IMG/VR virus record: IMGVR_UViG_3300045242_000094
Coordinates: 1 to 40,983 of that record
Source: a virus
Direction: 5' to 3' (one strand)
DNA: 40,983 bases
The notes beneath the pieces were generated by a model. The model did no database searches and was not told the DNA's origin. It saw only the letters and a program-made list of their open reading frames with translations. Numbering within the stretch: position 1 is the stretch's first letter; the number at the start of each line of letters is the position of its first letter. Positions 8,532-40,983 of the stretch are shown in pieces. Position numbers and translations under genes: made by a program.

Positions 8532-9206
8532 ATGGCGAAGGCTGCTGGATACCTACCCCACACGGGCCCGATCGTCACGCGGGCCGAGGCCAAGGCGGCC
8601 GGGGCCAAGCTATACTTCACCGGGAAGCCGTGTCCGAAGGGGCACATCAGCGAGCGGTGGATCGCAAGCTACTCATGCGATACGTGCCAGCGCTTCGATC
8701 TGATCGCGCTGTATCAGGGCAACTACAAAGGCCGCCGAGACCGCAACCGATCCACCGCTAAGGCGTATCGCGAGGCCGCGCGAGAGAAGAACCGCATTCT
8801 CTCGCGGCAACAGTATGAAGCCCGCAAGCCATATATGGCGGCGTGGCAGGCCGCCAACGCAGACAAAATCCGGGAGTATCGCCGCGCTCGCGATGCCGCA
8901 ATGTCAGACGAACAGCGCGAAAAGAAGCGCGTTATCGTTCGCAATCGTCGTGCCCGCAAGCGAGGGAATGGTGGGAAACACACCGCCGCCCAGATCAGGG
9001 AACTGTTAATCAGACAGCGACACAGATGTATATACTGTCCAGCAGATCTGCGGCGTGGCTATCACGCAGACCACATCATGCCGCTTGCCCGTGGCGGGTC
9101 GAACGACATCCGCAACATCCAGTTGCTGTGTCCGACCTGCAACGACAGCAAGGGCTACAGCCACCCTGTTGCATGGGCACAGCAGAAGCGGGGACGACTG
9201 CTGTAG
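8532..9206 (+). CDS. HNH endonuclease (probable homing endonuclease)
   Basis: 224 residues from ATG 8532 with ribosome binding site GGAGGTG. The N-terminus carries a zinc-type pair (GKPCPKGH ... CDTCQRF), a long basic helical middle follows, and the C-terminal HNH is CIYCPADL ... HADHIMPLARGGSNDIRNIQLLCPTCNDSKG, with the catalytic DH pair and the two closing Cys. This is a complete free-standing homing-type nuclease. It sits directly before the portal gene, a favoured site for such elements. Confidence 0.85.
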   Translation: MAKAAGYLPHTGPIVTRAEAKAAGAKLYFTGKPCPKGHISERWIASYSCDTCQRFDLIALYQGNYKGRRDRNRSTAKAYREAAREKNRILSRQQYEARKPYMAAWQAANADKIREYRRARDAAMSDEQREKKRVIVRNRRARKRGNGGKHTAAQIRELLIRQRHRCIYCPADLRRGYHADHIMPLARGGSNDIRNIQLLCPTCNDSKGYSHPVAWAQQKRGRLL

Positions 9207-17495: not shown

Positions 17496-18035
17496 ATGAA
17501 CCAAGATGAAAAGCGCGAATACAACCGTCTATACGCAATCGCCAATAAGGAGCGCATCGCCGCTAGACGTGAGGCGCGACGGGCTGGGCTTGGTGGCGAT
17601 GTCCGACGATGCAGCGTTTTGGGATGCAACGGCGTCTATGACGCAGCAGGATATTGTGGGCGACATTACATGGCGTTCCGGCGCCACGGAGACCCGACAG
17701 CGCCAGTCCAACTCCAGATACGCGGCAGGACGCTTGAGGAGCGTTTCATACTTCGCGTCAAGAAGGGGCGCGGGTGCTGGGAATGGACCGGCGCTCGTAA
17801 CTGGAAGGGCTATGGCGTGCTGCGCGTAGATGAAAGAAACCAGTTAGCCCATCGGATCGCCTATCAATTAGCGTACGGTGAAACCCCGTTTGATCTCTAC
17901 GTGCTCCATCATTGCGACAACCCAGGCTGTGTTCGGCCAGATCATCTGTTCCTAGGCACGCTCGCTGATAACAACGCGGACATGCGCGCAAAAGGCCGCA
18001 ACTGGTGGCCAGGAAAGGCGAGAATAAATGATTGA
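17496..18035 (+). CDS. HNH homing endonuclease
   Basis: 179 residues from ATG 17496. A basic N-terminus and a zinc-type motif (RRCSVLGCNGVYDAAGYCGRHYMAFRRHGDP) precede the HNH_3 core (CWEWTGARNWKGYGVL ... AHRIAYQLAYGETP ... LHHCDNPGCVRPDHLFLGTLADNNADM). It lacks the C-terminal HTH repeats of the 15956 gene but shares its core organisation. It overlaps the following connector gene by 8 bases, so it is coupled to an essential gene. Confidence 0.85.
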   Translation: MNQDEKREYNRLYAIANKERIAARREARRAGLGGDVRRCSVLGCNGVYDAAGYCGRHYMAFRRHGDPTAPVQLQIRGRTLEERFILRVKKGRGCWEWTGARNWKGYGVLRVDERNQLAHRIAYQLAYGETPFDLYVLHHCDNPGCVRPDHLFLGTLADNNADMRAKGRNWWPGKARIND

Positions 18036-36913: not shown

Positions 36914-37150
36914 ATGGCACCCCGGCCTCTCCAGCCTGGCGAGCGTGACGCAGCCCTGGAACTGGCGCTGAGCCCCCGTATGGCGGTCACGGAGATTGCC
37001 GAGGCCCTCGGCGTGTCCAGGGCGGCGGTCAGCCAGTGGCGGCGGGTGCCGGAGCGGCACGTTGCCGTGGTGGCGCGGCTCACGGGCATCTCGAAGCGGC
37101 GGCTGCGGCCGGACTTGTTCCCGGTGCGGCAGCGGCTGGCGGCTGAATGA
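36914..37150 (+). CDS. Cro-like HTH regulator (YdaS-type)
   Basis: 78 residues from ATG 36914. The HTH is MAVTEIAEALGVSRAAVSQWRRVPERHVAVVARLTGISKRRLRPDLFP, the YdaS/Cro pattern with a final R-P-D-[LI]-[FY]-P signature typical of antirepressor/Cro proteins. It is divergent from the CI-like gene, with an operator palindrome directly upstream, and begins the rightward early operon. The stop overlaps the next start as ATGA. Confidence 0.85.
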   Translation: MAPRPLQPGERDAALELALSPRMAVTEIAEALGVSRAAVSQWRRVPERHVAVVARLTGISKRRLRPDLFPVRQRLAAE

Positions 37151-37659
37151 CCCCCCCCGGCGATGACCCCCGCCCGATGCGCGTTGGTGGCGGCGTCCAG
37201 ACGGCCGAGGTGCGGGTCACCACGGGCCGCGCCTGGCGGCTGACGGAGGACATCCCGCGGGAAAAAGACATCCAGGCGACAGTCAGGCACGGGCTCGACG
37301 TATTGCTGATGCCGCCGGCGGTGTGGTTCGCGATGCCGGTCGGCCACATCAAGCTGACCAAGGCGCAGGCCGCGCGCCTCACGGAGATCGGCCTAAAGCG
37401 CGGCCTTCCCGACATCTTCGTGCTCCATCAGCGCCTCTATGGGGTTGAGCTGAAAAGACCTGGCGGCCAGTTGTCGCGGACGAGGATCGTGCGGACGCGT
37501 CGCGGCGGGCTGCGCGAGCTTGCAGGCCAGCGGGAGACCTTCCCGGTGCTTGAGGCCGCAGGGCTGACGATCGCCGTGTGCGACAGCCTGCCGGCCGTCC
37601 TGGCGTTTCTCACGGCCTGTGGCGTGCCCTTGAGGCCCTACACGGACATGGCCGCGTGA
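37147..37659 (+). CDS. VRR-NUC domain nuclease
   Basis: 170 residues from ATG 37147. Residues about 39-160 form the VRR-NUC type PD-(D/E)XK domain: EKDIQATVRHGLDVLLMP, GLKRGLPDIFVLH with the acidic residue at about 89, YGVELKRPGGQLS with E101 and K103, and the closing REtFPVLEAAGLTIAVCDSLPAVLAFL. Phage VRR-NUC proteins are stand-alone structure-specific or Holliday-junction-type nucleases used in recombination and replication. Its place early in the rightward operon fits this. Confidence 0.85.
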   Translation: MTPPGDDPRPMRVGGGVQTAEVRVTTGRAWRLTEDIPREKDIQATVRHGLDVLLMPPAVWFAMPVGHIKLTKAQAARLTEIGLKRGLPDIFVLHQRLYGVELKRPGGQLSRTRIVRTRRGGLRELAGQRETFPVLEAAGLTIAVCDSLPAVLAFLTACGVPLRPYTDMAA

Positions 37660-37757
37660 CGGTGCTCCGCGCCCTTGCCCTGACGGCTTGCGCGTGGGCG
37701 CTGAGCGGTGGGGCTACGTGGCTGGCGGTGGTGGCATTTTCTGAGCGGGGAATGTGA
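37656..37757 (+). CDS. Membrane microprotein
   Basis: 33 residues from GTG 37656, overlapping the VRR-NUC stop as GTGA; its own stop overlaps the next ATG as TGATG. The sequence (TVLRALALTACAWALSGGATWLAVVAFSERGM) is one hydrophobic span with a polar end. The overlaps at both ends are the evidence for translation; function unknown. Confidence 0.45.
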   Translation: MTVLRALALTACAWALSGGATWLAVVAFSERGM

Positions 37758-38389
37758 TGGTGCAATTGGCGCAGGCGTTGCGTGCGGCTGGCGTGGTGAC
37801 GATTGAGGAGCAACTGCGCTCGATTGCCATCGAGGTGCTCGCGGCACACGGCACCAGTCGTATTGCAGCGGCCAACGCGCTCTATGCCCGTGTGCGGCAC
37901 GATGCGGATCTGCTGGATGGATTGTTCGAGCCGTATCGGGAGTTGGCGCTGCGCCGGCTGCTGGGCGGCATCGAAAGCGAGATGCGCCGGGACGAGCTTA
38001 CTCGGCAGGAAAGGGCGCGCGGCGGGGGCCGCATAGCCTCTGACGACCATGCTGGATCTGCCCCCAACGAGCGCCCCGGTGGGGGCCACAAAGCGCGTGA
38101 GTACCAGATTCCTGGTGCCCCCACCCCTCCCAATCGCCGCGCGGCACAGGACAGCGTGGGGACCGTGCTGCGCCTGACCATGCTCGATACCTTCAGGATC
38201 GATGGGATGCCGATCGGTGACGTGCAGGCTGGTGTGGCGCGAGCGTGGGCGCGGCGCGAGGGCCGACATGTCCGATGGGTCACCATGCTGACCTCGAACG
38301 TCCCCGCTGCCGATCCGATCCGGCGCTGGATCAGCGCGGAGGATGCGGACGACCTATGGGCTCGCTCGGTGGAGGGCGACGATGCCTAG
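37757..38389 (+). CDS. Early protein with two TIGR-like units inside its linker
   Basis: 210 residues from ATG 37757. The N-terminal helical part is about residues 1-88 (TIEEQLRSIAIEVLAAHGTSRIAAANALYARVRHDADLLDGLFEPYRELALRRLLGGIESEM). The C-terminal part (about 124-210) includes VLRLTMLDTFRIDGMPIGDVQAGVARAWARREGRHVRWVTMLTSNVPAADPIRRW, which looks helical and nucleic-acid related. Between them residues about 89-123 (Gly/Pro-rich, unstructured) are encoded by two copies of the 36-nt structured repeat. The stop TAG overlaps the start of the Tas-like gene. I do not recognise the family. Confidence 0.65.
   Translation: MVQLAQALRAAGVVTIEEQLRSIAIEVLAAHGTSRIAAANALYARVRHDADLLDGLFEPYRELALRRLLGGIESEMRRDELTRQERARGGGRIASDDHAGSAPNERPGGGHKAREYQIPGAPTPPNRRAAQDSVGTVLRLTMLDTFRIDGMPIGDVQAGVARAWARREGRHVRWVTMLTSNVPAADPIRRWISAEDADDLWARSVEGDDA
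38022..38125. repeat. TIGR-like array part 1: units 1-2
   Basis: Two units of GGCC-N10-TG-N4-CC-N10-TGCC. The 28-base variable cores are 38031-38058 and 38088-38115, 57 bases apart. Unit 2 is closed by GGTGGGGGC (38078-38086) with GCCCCCACC (38117-38125); unit 1 has a 6-bp stem. The cores differ from each other except at the TG and CC positions. Both lie in frame in the 37757 gene's linker. Confidence 0.8.
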
Positions 38390-39467
38390 GAAACGCAAGA
38401 CAGAGATTGCCGGCCAGCCAGGCGTTGGAGCCCATACGGTCAATGCCGGTGATGCGGGGGTCGTTGGCCACATGCGCTCTGAGACCCAGACAACGCTTGC
38501 CGACGACACGGAGGCGGCCGGAAACTACGCGGTAGCCAGTAGGCAAATGCCGCCTCCGCGTGGCGTGGAGGGGGCCGAAGGTCAAATGGTCTCCAGGCGC
38601 ACGGTGCCCCCTCCACCTCCTCCCCTGATCGCGGAGCTTATCGAATGGCAGCGACGCCGGGTGCATGCGATCCGCTCGCAGTCTCAGTGTGATCGATCAT
38701 GCGATGCTTATGTGTCGCGTTATATCGGGTATCACGCCGGCCTACCGGAGGCCGAGCGGCTGGCGCTTATGAAGCGGGCCGCGAAGATGCGGGCTGACGT
38801 AGCGAAGTCTCGGGGCCGAGCATCAGATGAAGACCAGTGGACTGCTGCTCCGGAGGCGGCGGACGGCGGGGGCCAGGGAAGTTCTGAATCCCACGAGCTC
38901 ATTGCCCCCGACGCCTGCTTGCCCATCATCGTCAACACCATCCAGTCACGCGCCGGGTGGGATGCAATGCGCGTGGATGCCGAGCGTCGCATGCGTGAGA
39001 TCGCGCGGACGTTCGCGATCTATGAACGGTGCGCAGCCATCGCCGGGTTCGGTGACCTTGGCCTCGCCTGCATCATCGCAGAGGCCGGCAACGATCTGAC
39101 CAGCTATCCGCACTACTACCATCTGTGGAAACGCCTCGGGCTGGCGCCGTTCCGCGGCAAGGCGATGTCGCGGTTCAAGGCGGCTGAGCTGACCAAGGCT
39201 GAGTGGTCCGAGCTTGGCTACAATCCGATGCGACGCGGCAGGATGGCGGGCGATGTCGGCGCTGCGCTGTTCTTCGCCAAGGGCCGCAATGTATATGGCG
39301 ACGTCTATGCCCAGCGCCGCGAGCAGACGGCGCTGACGCACCCGGATTGGACGCCGGCGCACAGCGATGCGGATGCCAGGCGCATCATGCTGAAGGCGCT
39401 GGTGGAGGATCTGTGGCGCTGGTGGGTCGAGGCGGCGCGGGCCGCTGATCTGGCGGCTGCCGCGTGA
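38382..39467 (+). CDS. Tas-like protein (Nop/IS110 C-terminal-like domain), candidate TasA
   Basis: 361 residues from ATG 38382, overlapping the previous stop. Residues about 9-78 and 143-177 are low-complexity segments encoded by TIGR-like units. Residues about 79-142 are a helical arm (LIAELIEWQRRRVHAIRSQ ... ALMKRAAKMRADVAKSR). From about 178 to the end is a domain resembling the IS110 Transposase_20/Nop fold: FAIYERCAAIAGFGDLGLACIIAEAGNDLTSYPHYYHLWKRLGLAPF, then RRGRMAGDVGAALFFAKGRNVYGDVYAQRREQTA and DADARRIMLKALVEDLWRWWVEA. No RuvC DEDD, HNH or other nuclease motif is visible, so a nuclease-less TasA-type, RNA-guided DNA-binding role is the best hypothesis. The true start may be downstream of unit 6. 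A degenerate IS110 relative is the alternative. Confidence 0.7.
   Translation: MPRKRKTEIAGQPGVGAHTVNAGDAGVVGHMRSETQTTLADDTEAAGNYAVASRQMPPPRGVEGAEGQMVSRRTVPPPPPPLIAELIEWQRRRVHAIRSQSQCDRSCDAYVSRYIGYHAGLPEAERLALMKRAAKMRADVAKSRGRASDEDQWTAAPEAADGGGQGSSESHELIAPDACLPIIVNTIQSRAGWDAMRVDAERRMREIARTFAIYERCAAIAGFGDLGLACIIAEAGNDLTSYPHYYHLWKRLGLAPFRGKAMSRFKAAELTKAEWSELGYNPMRRGRMAGDVGAALFFAKGRNVYGDVYAQRREQTALTHPDWTPAHSDADARRIMLKALVEDLWRWWVEAARAADLAAAA
38406..38616. repeat. TIGR-like array part 2: units 3-6
   Basis: Four units with cores at 38416-38443, 38470-38497, 38520-38547 and 38577-38604. The closing stems differ but all pair: ATTGCCGGC/GCCGGTGAT (two G-U), GTCGTTGGC/GCCGACGAC (one G-U), GGAGGCGGC/GCCGCCTCC, and GTGGAGGGGGC/GCCCCCTCCAC. 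This is clear covariation. They encode, in frame, residues about 9-78 of the Tas-like ORF. Confidence 0.85.
38810..38910. repeat. TIGR-like array part 3: units 7-8
   Basis: Two units 57 bases apart, cores 38818-38845 and 38875-38902. The first ends TGCT where the others have TGCC and has a 7-bp stem with two G-U pairs; the second is closed by CGGGGGC (38867-38873) with GCCCCCG (38904-38910). They encode residues about 143-177 of the Tas-like ORF, exactly between its N-terminal helical part and its Nop/IS110-like domain. Confidence 0.8.
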
Positions 39468-39468
39468 G

Positions 39469-39861
39469 TATCGGGGCCGATCGTTGGGTGGATACCAGGC
39501 TGTCACTGCCCCGATGTCAGCGAGGGGAGGGGGCCATTATCTCGGTGTATCCCGACGATGCCGTGCCCCCTCTGCTTGCTGACGAGATGACCCGGGCCGG
39601 AGGCACAATGATTACCGCCAACGAATTGCCGGGGCATATCGGGGCCGTATCCATAATGACGCCCACGCGCGTCTTGCCCCGATGCCGGTGGGTGGAGGGG
39701 GCCAGCGTAGATGTGGATCCCACGATTTGTTTGCCCCCTCTGCCTGCCGACGTGCTGACCTTGGCCGATGAGACACTGAATACCGAAGAGGTGTTGCCGG
39801 GGTCGTCATGGAACCGCGCGGCCAATGGCACAGAGCATACCGAACGGAGCGTGCCGCGCGG
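39469..39861. repeat. TIGR-like array part 4: units 9-15, main array after tas
   Basis: Seven units begin two bases after the Tas-like stop, with cores starting at 39479, 39536, 39599, 39647, 39704, 39767 and 39824. Six have 9-bp closing stems, for example TATCGGGGC/GCCCCGATG (twice), GGAGGGGGC/GCCCCCTCT (second of each triplet, near-identical), GACCTTGGC/GCCGGGGTC (two G-U) and CCGCGCGGC/GCCGCGCGG; one (core 39599) is mismatched. Units 9-11 (39469-39636) and 12-14 (39637-39804) are adjacent 168-base blocks that share stems and linkers while the 28-base cores are unrelated. Core consensus: N10-TG-R-N-N-M-CC-R-N9. Confidence 0.85.
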
Positions 39862-40019: not shown

Positions 40020-40283
40020 ATGACAATCCCGACATACGTCCGCAACCGTCCCGAGGGGCTGCGCCACCGGGCGCTGATCCGGCGGTGGATATTGCCCCGG
40101 CTGCGGCCTGGGTGCCGAATTCCATCGGCCGCGTGGATGGGCCGGTTCCTGCACATCAGCGCCGGCGAGGGCGCGCGGCACATGCGCCGGGTGCTGGCGG
40201 AGGCGGGAATTCAAACCGAGACACGGGGCGCCTGGCGCGATCGCCGGACCTACGTCGTGGCCGTGGGGAGGGTTGAGGCGTGA
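40020..40283 (+). CDS. Small basic winged-helix-like replication protein
   Basis: 87 residues from ATG 40020 with a good ribosome binding site. Very basic: MTIPTYVRNRPEGLRHRALIRRWILPRLRPGCRIPSAAWMGRFLHISAGEGARHMRRVLAEAGIQTETRGAWRDRRTYVVAVGRVEA, which reads as a winged-helix (helix, AGEGARHMRRVLAEAG recognition-type helix, two-strand wing). It is coupled by GTGA to the DUF1376 replication gene. Probably a DNA-binding partner for replication initiation (inference). Confidence 0.65.
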   Translation: MTIPTYVRNRPEGLRHRALIRRWILPRLRPGCRIPSAAWMGRFLHISAGEGARHMRRVLAEAGIQTETRGAWRDRRTYVVAVGRVEA

Positions 40284-40983
40284 GCATCCTTCCGCACCCG
40301 TTGACGCCGCCTGACTGTGATCTGCGAGGCTTTGAGTGGATGCAGCTCTGGGGCCACCGGATGTTCACCAGCAGCTGGTACCGCGCCGCTCGCAAGGATG
40401 GGCGTGGGGGTATTGCGTCTCTCAAGCTCTATTGGGCAGCAATGCTGCAGTGCCCCGCTGGCAGCCTCCCGAATGACGAGGAAGAGCTTTGCATGCTCGC
40501 TGATTTTGGTGAGGACATGCGGGCGTGGAAGAGGCACCGTCTGGTTGCCATGCACGGGTTCGTCCTTTGCTCCGACAATCGCTGGTATCACCCGGTGGTG
40601 GCAGAGCAGGTGCTCGATGCTTACGACCGACGGTTGAAATCAGCGCGCACCCGTGAGGTTGATCGGGAGCGTTTGAAACGGTGGAGGGCGAGCCACAACG
40701 GGGCGCAACCACCCGACAAACCAAACGGAGAAACGCCTAATGAAACGCGTTTCGAAACGCGGCCCGAAACGGGGGGTGAAACCCCCGACGAAACGTCGCG
40801 CGCGACAGGACAGTACCAGACAAGACAAGAAAGACCCCCCCTAGGCCCCCCCCAAAGCCGGGGGGGGCGGCGTGGCGCGCCCCGAAATGGCTTCAAGGCG
40901 TTGGAACAGAGGCTGGCAGCAGCCGACGCCAGTCGAGGCACGACGATCGAGGCAACCGCCGAGGAAGTGGCGGAAATCCACGA
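40280..40983 (+). CDS. DUF1376-type replication protein (N-terminal part, crosses contig junction)
   Basis: Starts at GTG 40280, overlapping the stop of the upstream gene as GTGA, and continues through the junction to the TGA at 171-173, giving about 249 residues. Residues 1 to about 100 resemble the DUF1376 (YdaU-like) domain found at the N-terminus of phage replication-initiation proteins, with aromatic and acidic residues around WMQLWGHRMFTSSWY and the ASLKLYWAAMLQCPAGSLP segment. A charged middle rich in repeated NETRFETRPET-like residues precedes a basic, Gly/Arg-rich stretch encoded by the poly-C/poly-G tracts. It follows a small winged-helix gene and precedes a possible helicase loader, which supports a role in replication initiation. 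The poly-C/G tracts could cause slippage. The family call is from sequence style only. Confidence 0.75.
   Translation, partial: MSILPHPLTPPDCDLRGFEWMQLWGHRMFTSSWYRAARKDGRGGIASLKLYWAAMLQCPAGSLPNDEEELCMLADFGEDMRAWKRHRLVAMHGFVLCSDNRWYHPVVAEQVLDAYDRRLKSARTREVDRERLKRWRASHNGAQPPDKPNGETPNETRFETRPETGGETPDETSRATGQYQTRQERPPLGPPQSRGGRRGAPRNGFKALEQRLAAADASRGTTIEATAEEVAEIH
40857..40983. repeat. Terminal direct repeat, right copy
   Basis: Second copy of the 127-base repeat. It starts at a run of eight G (40860-40867) that faces a run of eight C (40846-40853), which together can form a very strong hairpin inside the DUF1376 coding sequence. The junction therefore lies at a sequence that is hard to sequence, which fits assembly ending there. 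Confidence 0.95.

What the first reader, a model, noticed from the sequence alone, without database searches (positions are those of the whole stretch)
38022..39861. Candidate TIGR-Tas system in a phage, with 15 guide-like units
Fifteen units share GGCC-N10-TGNNNNCC-N10-TGCC (one ends TGCT), exactly 36 nt, the published length of processed tigRNAs. Each has two 10-nt variable segments around a conserved core, as in the dual-spacer design of TIGR arrays, and closing stems that covary (for example ATTGCCGGC/GCCGGTGAT versus CCGCGCGGC/GCCGCGCGG). The gene between and before the units encodes an IS110/Nop-like C-terminal domain without a visible nuclease motif, as expected for TasA. The unit geometry is read directly from the sequence; the TIGR-Tas name is by comparison.
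Basis: partly seen in the sequence, partly recalled or inferred. Interest (0 to 1): 0.97.

Follow-up and report, generated by a model that had tools for sequence, protein, structure and literature searches.

The report
Guide-RNA array inside phage protein genes
A bacterial virus carries a TIGR-Tas system, a recently described kind of RNA-guided DNA-binding system, and eight of its fifteen guide-RNA units lie inside protein-coding genes, six of them in the gene for the guide-binding protein, while the guide sequences are swapped completely between closely related viruses.

Summary
In detail: 15 units at 38027-39855, all on one strand. Their closing stems covary strongly, and no equivalent appears in 100 shuffles. 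The protein is a Nop-domain Tas protein: the best fold match is TasR (9MTY), then TasH, then IS110. The only profile hit in the PDB at E<0.01 is TasR. A covariance model from these units finds the same units, on the gene's strand, beside Nop genes only 27-34% identical, but almost nowhere in related phages that lack the gene. So this is a TIGR-TasA system of the published stem-loop-array type, not the dual-repeat type, with 9-nt rather than 10-nt spacers.

Three points go beyond the published text. Eight units lie in frame inside translated genes: two in a conserved upstream gene and six in tasA, including two at the tip of its dimerising coiled coil. Codons on both sides are under purifying selection and no in-frame stops occur. 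Second, in relatives 84-92% identical in the Nop domain the unit slots and flanks persist, but the spacers are replaced (about 22% identity, the random level). Third, N-terminal embedding recurs in distant relatives, including a cultured Rhizobium phage. Targets were sought and not found. Guide production, processing and function are inferred, not shown.

The parts
37757..38389 (+). ORF1, conserved partner gene upstream of tasA; units 1-2 lie in frame in its linker
   Evidence: N- and C-parts conserved in four phages (A3), dN/dS 0.02-0.18 on both sides of the units
38027..38062 (+). unit 1 (in ORF1)
38084..38119 (+). unit 2 (in ORF1)
38382..39467 (+). tasA: Nop-domain protein, 361 aa, no nuclease domain
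   Evidence: Foldseek top TasR/TasH, PDB profile hit 9MTY TasR, phrog_4285, no Pfam domain at or above cut-off; GGTGGAGGG before the ATG at 38382
38412..38447 (+). unit 3 (in tasA, N-terminal extension)
38466..38501 (+). unit 4 (in tasA, N-terminal extension)
38516..38551 (+). unit 5 (in tasA; first box D is CG)
38573..38608 (+). unit 6 (in tasA; identical in relative L002)
38625..38807 (+). tasA coiled-coil helix 1 (conserved, translated, between unit groups)
   Evidence: aa identity 0.84-0.98, dN/dS 0.03-0.06
38814..38849 (+). unit 7 (encodes part of the coiled-coil tip loop; ends TGCT)
38871..38906 (+). unit 8 (encodes part of the coiled-coil tip loop)
38913..39464 (+). tasA second coil helix and Nop RNA-binding domain
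   Evidence: dN/dS 0.05-0.12; fold match
39475..39510 (+). unit 9 (downstream array)
39532..39567 (+). unit 10 (downstream array)
39595..39630 (+). unit 11 (downstream array)
39643..39678 (+). unit 12 (downstream array)
39700..39735 (+). unit 13 (downstream array; near-identical to L002 6617)
39763..39798 (+). unit 14 (downstream array)
39820..39855 (+). unit 15 (downstream array; first box D is AG)

Best explanation
[quoted passage not shown] Each unit is a variable stem closing a loop that reads CCR - spacer A (9 nt) - TG - 4 nt - CCR - spacer B (9 nt) - TG; CCR is box C and TG is box D. Inferred step: the units are transcribed with the ORF1-tasA transcript and released as small RNAs, which a TasA dimer binds through its Nop domains and carries to DNA whose two strands match spacers A and B side by side. 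Without a nuclease, TasA would bind, bend or block the site rather than cut it. Shown: eight of the fifteen units are in frame inside translated genes, six in tasA itself, so the sequence that encodes TasA also contains its guide units; every guide cut from within tasA would cost a tasA message (inferred). Shown: spacers are replaced wholesale between relatives while stems, boxes and slots stay, as expected of guides under selection to change. The biological target (competing phages, plasmids, host genes) is unknown.
For: Units and covariation. Tas fold: TasR 9MTY E=4.7e-4, prob 1.00, rmsd 2.7; TasH complexes next; then IS621, ISCro4 and Prp31/Nop5. The poorer four-sequence model also ranked TasH first. 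Profile search of all PDB sequences: only 9MTY below E=0.01 (9MTY is TasR). A covariance model from the window clade finds units beside Nop genes 27-34% identical (38 of 39 hits in the eight Nop-bearing loci L010 and L050-L056, all on the gene's strand; one weak hit in 19 loci fetched by terminase; none in L011). A pattern plus stem search of 13 complete or partial genomes gives 103 units within 7 kb of the Nop gene (about 182 kb) and 2 in the other 503 kb. Box D is TG at both sites in the window clade and CG at both sites in the Rhizobiales clade, the matched edge/loop divergence described in PMC12045711. Coding: dN/dS 0.02-0.18 before and after the units; 28 embedded units in four phages with 0 in-frame stops against 4.6 expected (p=0.0098) and never in the phase in which box D TG would often make TGA. 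Turnover: spacers about 22% identical, 15-nt flanks about 80%, in 22 non-identical slot comparisons.
Against: No RNA data: transcription, processing and guide loading are not shown. No target found: 102 spacer pairs against 1.05 Mb of relatives show no excess in the published geometry over control geometries, and two units have no exact target in 298 genomes of the host family. No sigma-70-like promoter and no terminator beyond chance. The fold E-values are moderate and the TM-scores about 0.5. The in-frame argument rests on four closely related phages, and the stop-codon p-value treats shared units as independent.
Confidence: 0.87

Rival explanations
1. Same TIGR-TasA system, but the embedded units are not really translated: the true starts lie after the units (two-part ORF1, tasA split or starting later), and the open frame is a by-product of high G+C.
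For: In L051 and L053 the start codon with a ribosome-binding site lies after the upstream units, so units can sit in the 5' untranslated region. The unit-encoded peptide is low-complexity and predicted with pLDDT below 50.
Against: Coil helix 1 and the Nop domain are one structural unit with two units between them, and both are under strong purifying selection in one frame. Starts with a purine-rich site lie upstream of the units in the window, L002, L003, L010, L054, L055, L056 and L052. No stops in 28 units.
Confidence: 0.12
2. Units are in-frame palindromic insertion elements (like Rickettsia palindromic elements) that spread selfishly, not guides.
For: In-frame palindromic insertion into protein genes is known for such elements (own knowledge; a related review is PMC10969869, not read). 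An orthologous gene exists without units: the ORF1 homologue in L046.
Against: The palindromes are not the conserved part: stem sequence varies by compensatory change, whereas box C, box D and the 9/4/9 spacing are fixed. Units are confined to the neighbourhood of the Nop gene in 13 genomes and the Nop protein matches tigRNA-binding proteins.
Confidence: 0.04
3. The protein is an IS110-family transposase and the units are bridge-RNA-like parts of a mobile element.
For: phrog_4285 is named transposase; weak Pfam Transposase_20 similarity, below cut-off.
Against: No N-terminal DEDD domain; the unit-bearing N-terminus is low-complexity; many units per gene; TasR and TasH are better fold matches than IS621 and ISCro4.
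Confidence: 0.02

Closest known systems
TIGR-TasA with a stem-loop array (Peromyscus leucopus gut contig; Faure et al. 2025, PMC12045711, Fig. 7)
   Same: Nuclease-free Nop protein; three sub-arrays; [quoted passage not shown]
   Different: The published array is described as three subarrays separated by a ~450-nt intergenic region; here 8 of 15 units are inside translated genes, six of them in tasA. The main text of that paper has no report of arrays overlapping coding sequence. Loop fixed at 4 nt here, 9-nt spacers.
Dual-repeat TIGR arrays (TasR, TasH, FpTasA)
   Same: About 9-nt spacers, box C CCA-like and box D UG-like motifs at both ends, 36-nt unit.
   Different: No constant edge and loop repeats; edges are variable palindromes and loops vary in sequence.
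IS110 bridge RNA and transposase; box C/D snoRNP (Nop5/Nop56/58, Prp31)
   Same: Nop RNA-binding fold.
   Different: No DEDD recombinase domain or single bridge RNA; no K-turn boxes.
Rhizobium phage RHph_X2_25 QWY83253.1 locus (MW960032; annotated hypothetical)
   Same: Distant Nop homologue with the same units (box D CG), two fitting the model inside the annotated coding sequence.
   Different: About 27-31% protein identity; temperate phage (integrase, repressor); the gene lies between repressor C and an XRE regulator.

Membership tests
TIGR-Tas | Nop-domain effector of the Tas group | tested here: met
   Top Foldseek matches TasR 9MTY and TasH complexes; only PDB profile hit below E=0.01 is TasR
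TIGR-Tas | Array of repeated dual-spacer units next to the tas gene | tested here: met
   15 units; 103 units near Nop genes versus 2 far in 13 genomes
TIGR-Tas | Box C and box D at both spacer pairs, diverging together between the two sites | tested here: met
   CCR/TG twice in window clade; CCA/CG twice in Rhizobiales clade
TIGR-Tas, dual-repeat subtype | Constant alternating edge and loop repeats | tested here: not met
   Edges are variable palindromes, loop NNNN variable
TIGR-Tas, stem-loop subtype | Variable but palindromic sequence in place of edge repeats | tested here: met
   Covariation
TasA | No nuclease domain | tested here: met
   No HNH or RuvC hit in Pfam or PHROGs; N-terminus is low-complexity and encoded by units
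TIGR-Tas | Array processed to guide RNAs bound by Tas | not testable with these tools
   needs small-RNA sequencing of a pull-down
TIGR-Tas | Tandem-spacer DNA targeting (A then reverse complement of B, gap 0-2) | tested here: inconclusive
   No excess of targets over control geometries in relatives; single leads only
IS110 transposase | N-terminal DEDD RuvC-like domain with single bridge RNA | tested here: not met
   No such domain by Pfam/PHROGs; the protein begins with the unit-encoded extension, then the coil
box C/D snoRNA | K-turn boxes RUGAUGA/CUGA and L7Ae partner | tested here: not met
   Boxes are CCR and TG; L7Ae itself was not searched for
CRISPR-Cas | 25-36 nt direct repeats with one spacer each, cas genes | tested here: not met
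   Unit anatomy; no cas gene among the proteins scanned (not all ORFs were scanned)

The most novel reading that the evidence does not exclude
One transcript serves as both message and guide array: guides are embedded in frame in the effector's own gene (and in the tip loop of its dimerising coiled coil), so TasA that binds units in its own message turns it into guides and limits its own synthesis. The spacers are a hypervariable repertoire exchanged slot by slot under a double constraint: new guides must keep 9-nt length and an open reading frame.
Probability: 0.4. Interest if true: 0.88.

Novelty: new variant of a known kind. Interest (0 to 1): 0.74.

Why it matters
How TIGR arrays gain and change spacers and what nuclease-free TasA proteins do are stated open questions (PMC12045711). 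This locus gives aligned relatives in which individual unit slots can be followed while their spacers change, which makes spacer turnover measurable without a known adaptation gene. Coding-embedded guides also predict a testable link between translation, RNA processing and TasA level. Finding the same system in a cultured Rhizobium phage and in genomes of named Rhizobium and Shinella strains gives laboratory material in which native targets, so far hard to find because most loci are metagenomic, can be sought.

Tried and rejected
Targets: all spacer pairs against own and related genomes in four geometries plus a reversed-spacer control, gaps 0-2, 9- and 10-nt spacers; no excess in the published geometry. 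One 1-mismatch hit (unit 6 against a portal gene in G004) is about 0.1 expected by chance. IMG/VR scan for the unit 6 target: 31 stretches, apparent excess at one spacing mostly duplicate contigs of one portal and one other gene; four are SNF2-like helicase motif V, one exact 18/18, but that motif is common in phages, so no claim. Units 3 and 13: no exact target in IMG/VR. Host family: 0 of 298 genomes for one unit of each of two prophage-like loci. Shared half-spacers among 116 units: 8 at one mismatch or fewer, about 7 expected, so no sign of half-unit exchange. Rfam: nothing. Single-sequence folding z-scores are mostly unremarkable, because the signal is covariation, not stability. The 36-nt length match was set aside as evidence. 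Protein search in genome contigs with the single sequence gave none; with the alignment, four.

Full report
What is there. The window is a phage genome (P22-like portal; terminase) with a 127-bp direct repeat at its ends, so probably a complete circular or permuted contig. Fifteen units lie at 38027-39855 on the + strand. Each is a variable stem closing CCR-N9-TG-N4-CCR-N9-TG. Twelve match exactly and three deviate at one position. With at least five closing pairs required, 100 dinucleotide shuffles of the window give none. The closing stem of eight pairs covaries: 92.0% of cells pair in 44 units, 86 cells have both sides changed against 23.5 in shuffles, and sliding the partner by one to three columns drops pairing to 53-63%.

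The protein. The 38382-39467 product has no Pfam domain at cut-off, a hit to phrog_4285 'transposase' (E=1.9e-7) and relatives in IMG/VR at 84-92% and at 27-34%. A profile of 11 relatives against all PDB sequences has one hit below E=0.01, 9MTY, which the TIGR-Tas paper names as TasR. A model from that alignment (pLDDT 77.8) matches TasR first (E=4.7e-4, rmsd 2.7), then TasH complexes, then IS621, ISCro4 and Prp31/Nop5. No nuclease domain is present. This is a TasA.

Link between units and protein. A covariance model of the window-clade units finds units in the eight other Nop-bearing loci L010 and L050-L056, whose Nop genes are only 27-34% identical, all on the gene's strand; 19 loci fetched by terminase give one weak hit, and L011 (Microcystis phage, a weaker Nop relative) gives none. 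Across 13 complete or partial genomes 103 of 105 pattern-plus-stem hits lie within 7 kb of the Nop gene. In the distant clade box D is CG at both sites instead of TG at both, with the same 9-nt spacers; the paper reports that these motifs diverge together between sites. That is independent support for membership. The array is the stem-loop type of PMC12045711 Fig. 7, not the dual-repeat type.

Embedding in genes. Units 1-2 lie in frame inside ORF1 (37757-38389) and units 3-8 inside tasA. ORF1 is conserved before and after its units (dN/dS about 0.18 and 0.02-0.12). In tasA the coil helix between units 6 and 7 has dN/dS 0.03-0.06 and the part after unit 8 has 0.05-0.12 (alignments). Units 7-8 encode the loop at the tip of the coiled coil, where relatives have a short turn; the model gives pLDDT below 50 there. 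In four phages 28 embedded units contain no in-frame stop (4.6 expected, p=0.0098) and never sit in the one phase in which box D would often read TGA. N-terminal embedding recurs downstream of start codons with a ribosome-binding-like site in RHph_X2_25, L052, L054, L055 and L056, but not in L051 and L053, where units precede the start. An ORF1 homologue without tas and without units exists in L046, and the gene upstream of tas in the Rhizobiales loci is collinear with ORF1 (weak: hhalign E 0.005, probability 7%). The searched main text of the paper has no mention of arrays in coding sequence; supplements were not available to me.

Spacer turnover. Unit slots, stems and 15-nt flanks are kept between relatives (about 80% identity) but spacers are at the random level (about 22%) in 22 slot comparisons; two units are identical and one nearly so between the window and L002. 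This pattern suggests that spacers change as whole units, not by drift. Sharing of half-spacers among 116 units is at chance.

Mechanism. Shown: anatomy, Tas fold, coding embedding, turnover. Inferred from the family: transcription, processing by a host RNase, loading on a TasA dimer, two-strand DNA binding without cleavage. Inferred from the anatomy: message and guide compete for the same transcript. Targets were sought and not found; the unit 6 leads (a portal gene, SNF2 helicase motif V) are at about chance level. In RHph_X2_25 the gene sits between the repressor and an XRE regulator, which would fit a role in lysogeny or superinfection, but this is one case.

Verdict. A real TIGR-TasA system, new variant: guide units embedded in frame in translated genes including the effector's own, with slot-wise spacer replacement.

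Noticed in passing
L010 (MW960032.1 24663-25718): The cultured Rhizobium phage RHph_X2_25 carries a tasA annotated as hypothetical protein, between repressor C and an XRE regulator, with stem-loop units around and inside the gene.
   Followed up: yes
L117, L118, L119, L120: Tas relatives with unit arrays in genomes of Rhizobium esperanzae, Shinella sumterensis, Metarhizobium album and an alphaproteobacterial MAG; the first two are the same elements as two IMG/VR records used here (identical Nop protein and units).
   Followed up: partly
L046:8969-9619: Homologue of ORF1 in a related phage without tas and without units; ORF1 may be an older phage gene recruited to the module.
   Followed up: partly
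L020:3493-6340: In this relative the stretch between the nuclease gene (like 37147-37659) and the gene like 40020-40283 holds a methyltransferase-like gene and other genes instead of ORF1-tas-array, so the module is replaceable.
   Followed up: partly
window:1-127 and 40857-40983: Direct terminal repeat of 127 bp, consistent with a complete circular or terminally redundant contig.
   Followed up: no
window:15956-16933, 17496-18035, 8532-9206: Three HNH or endonuclease VII-like genes, two beside the major head protein gene.
   Followed up: no
L072:1626-1643: Exact 18/18 match to the predicted target of unit 6 in motif V of a phage SNF2-like helicase; three homologous helicases match all 17 bases of the search pattern. 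Expected by chance about once or twice, so only a lead.
   Followed up: partly
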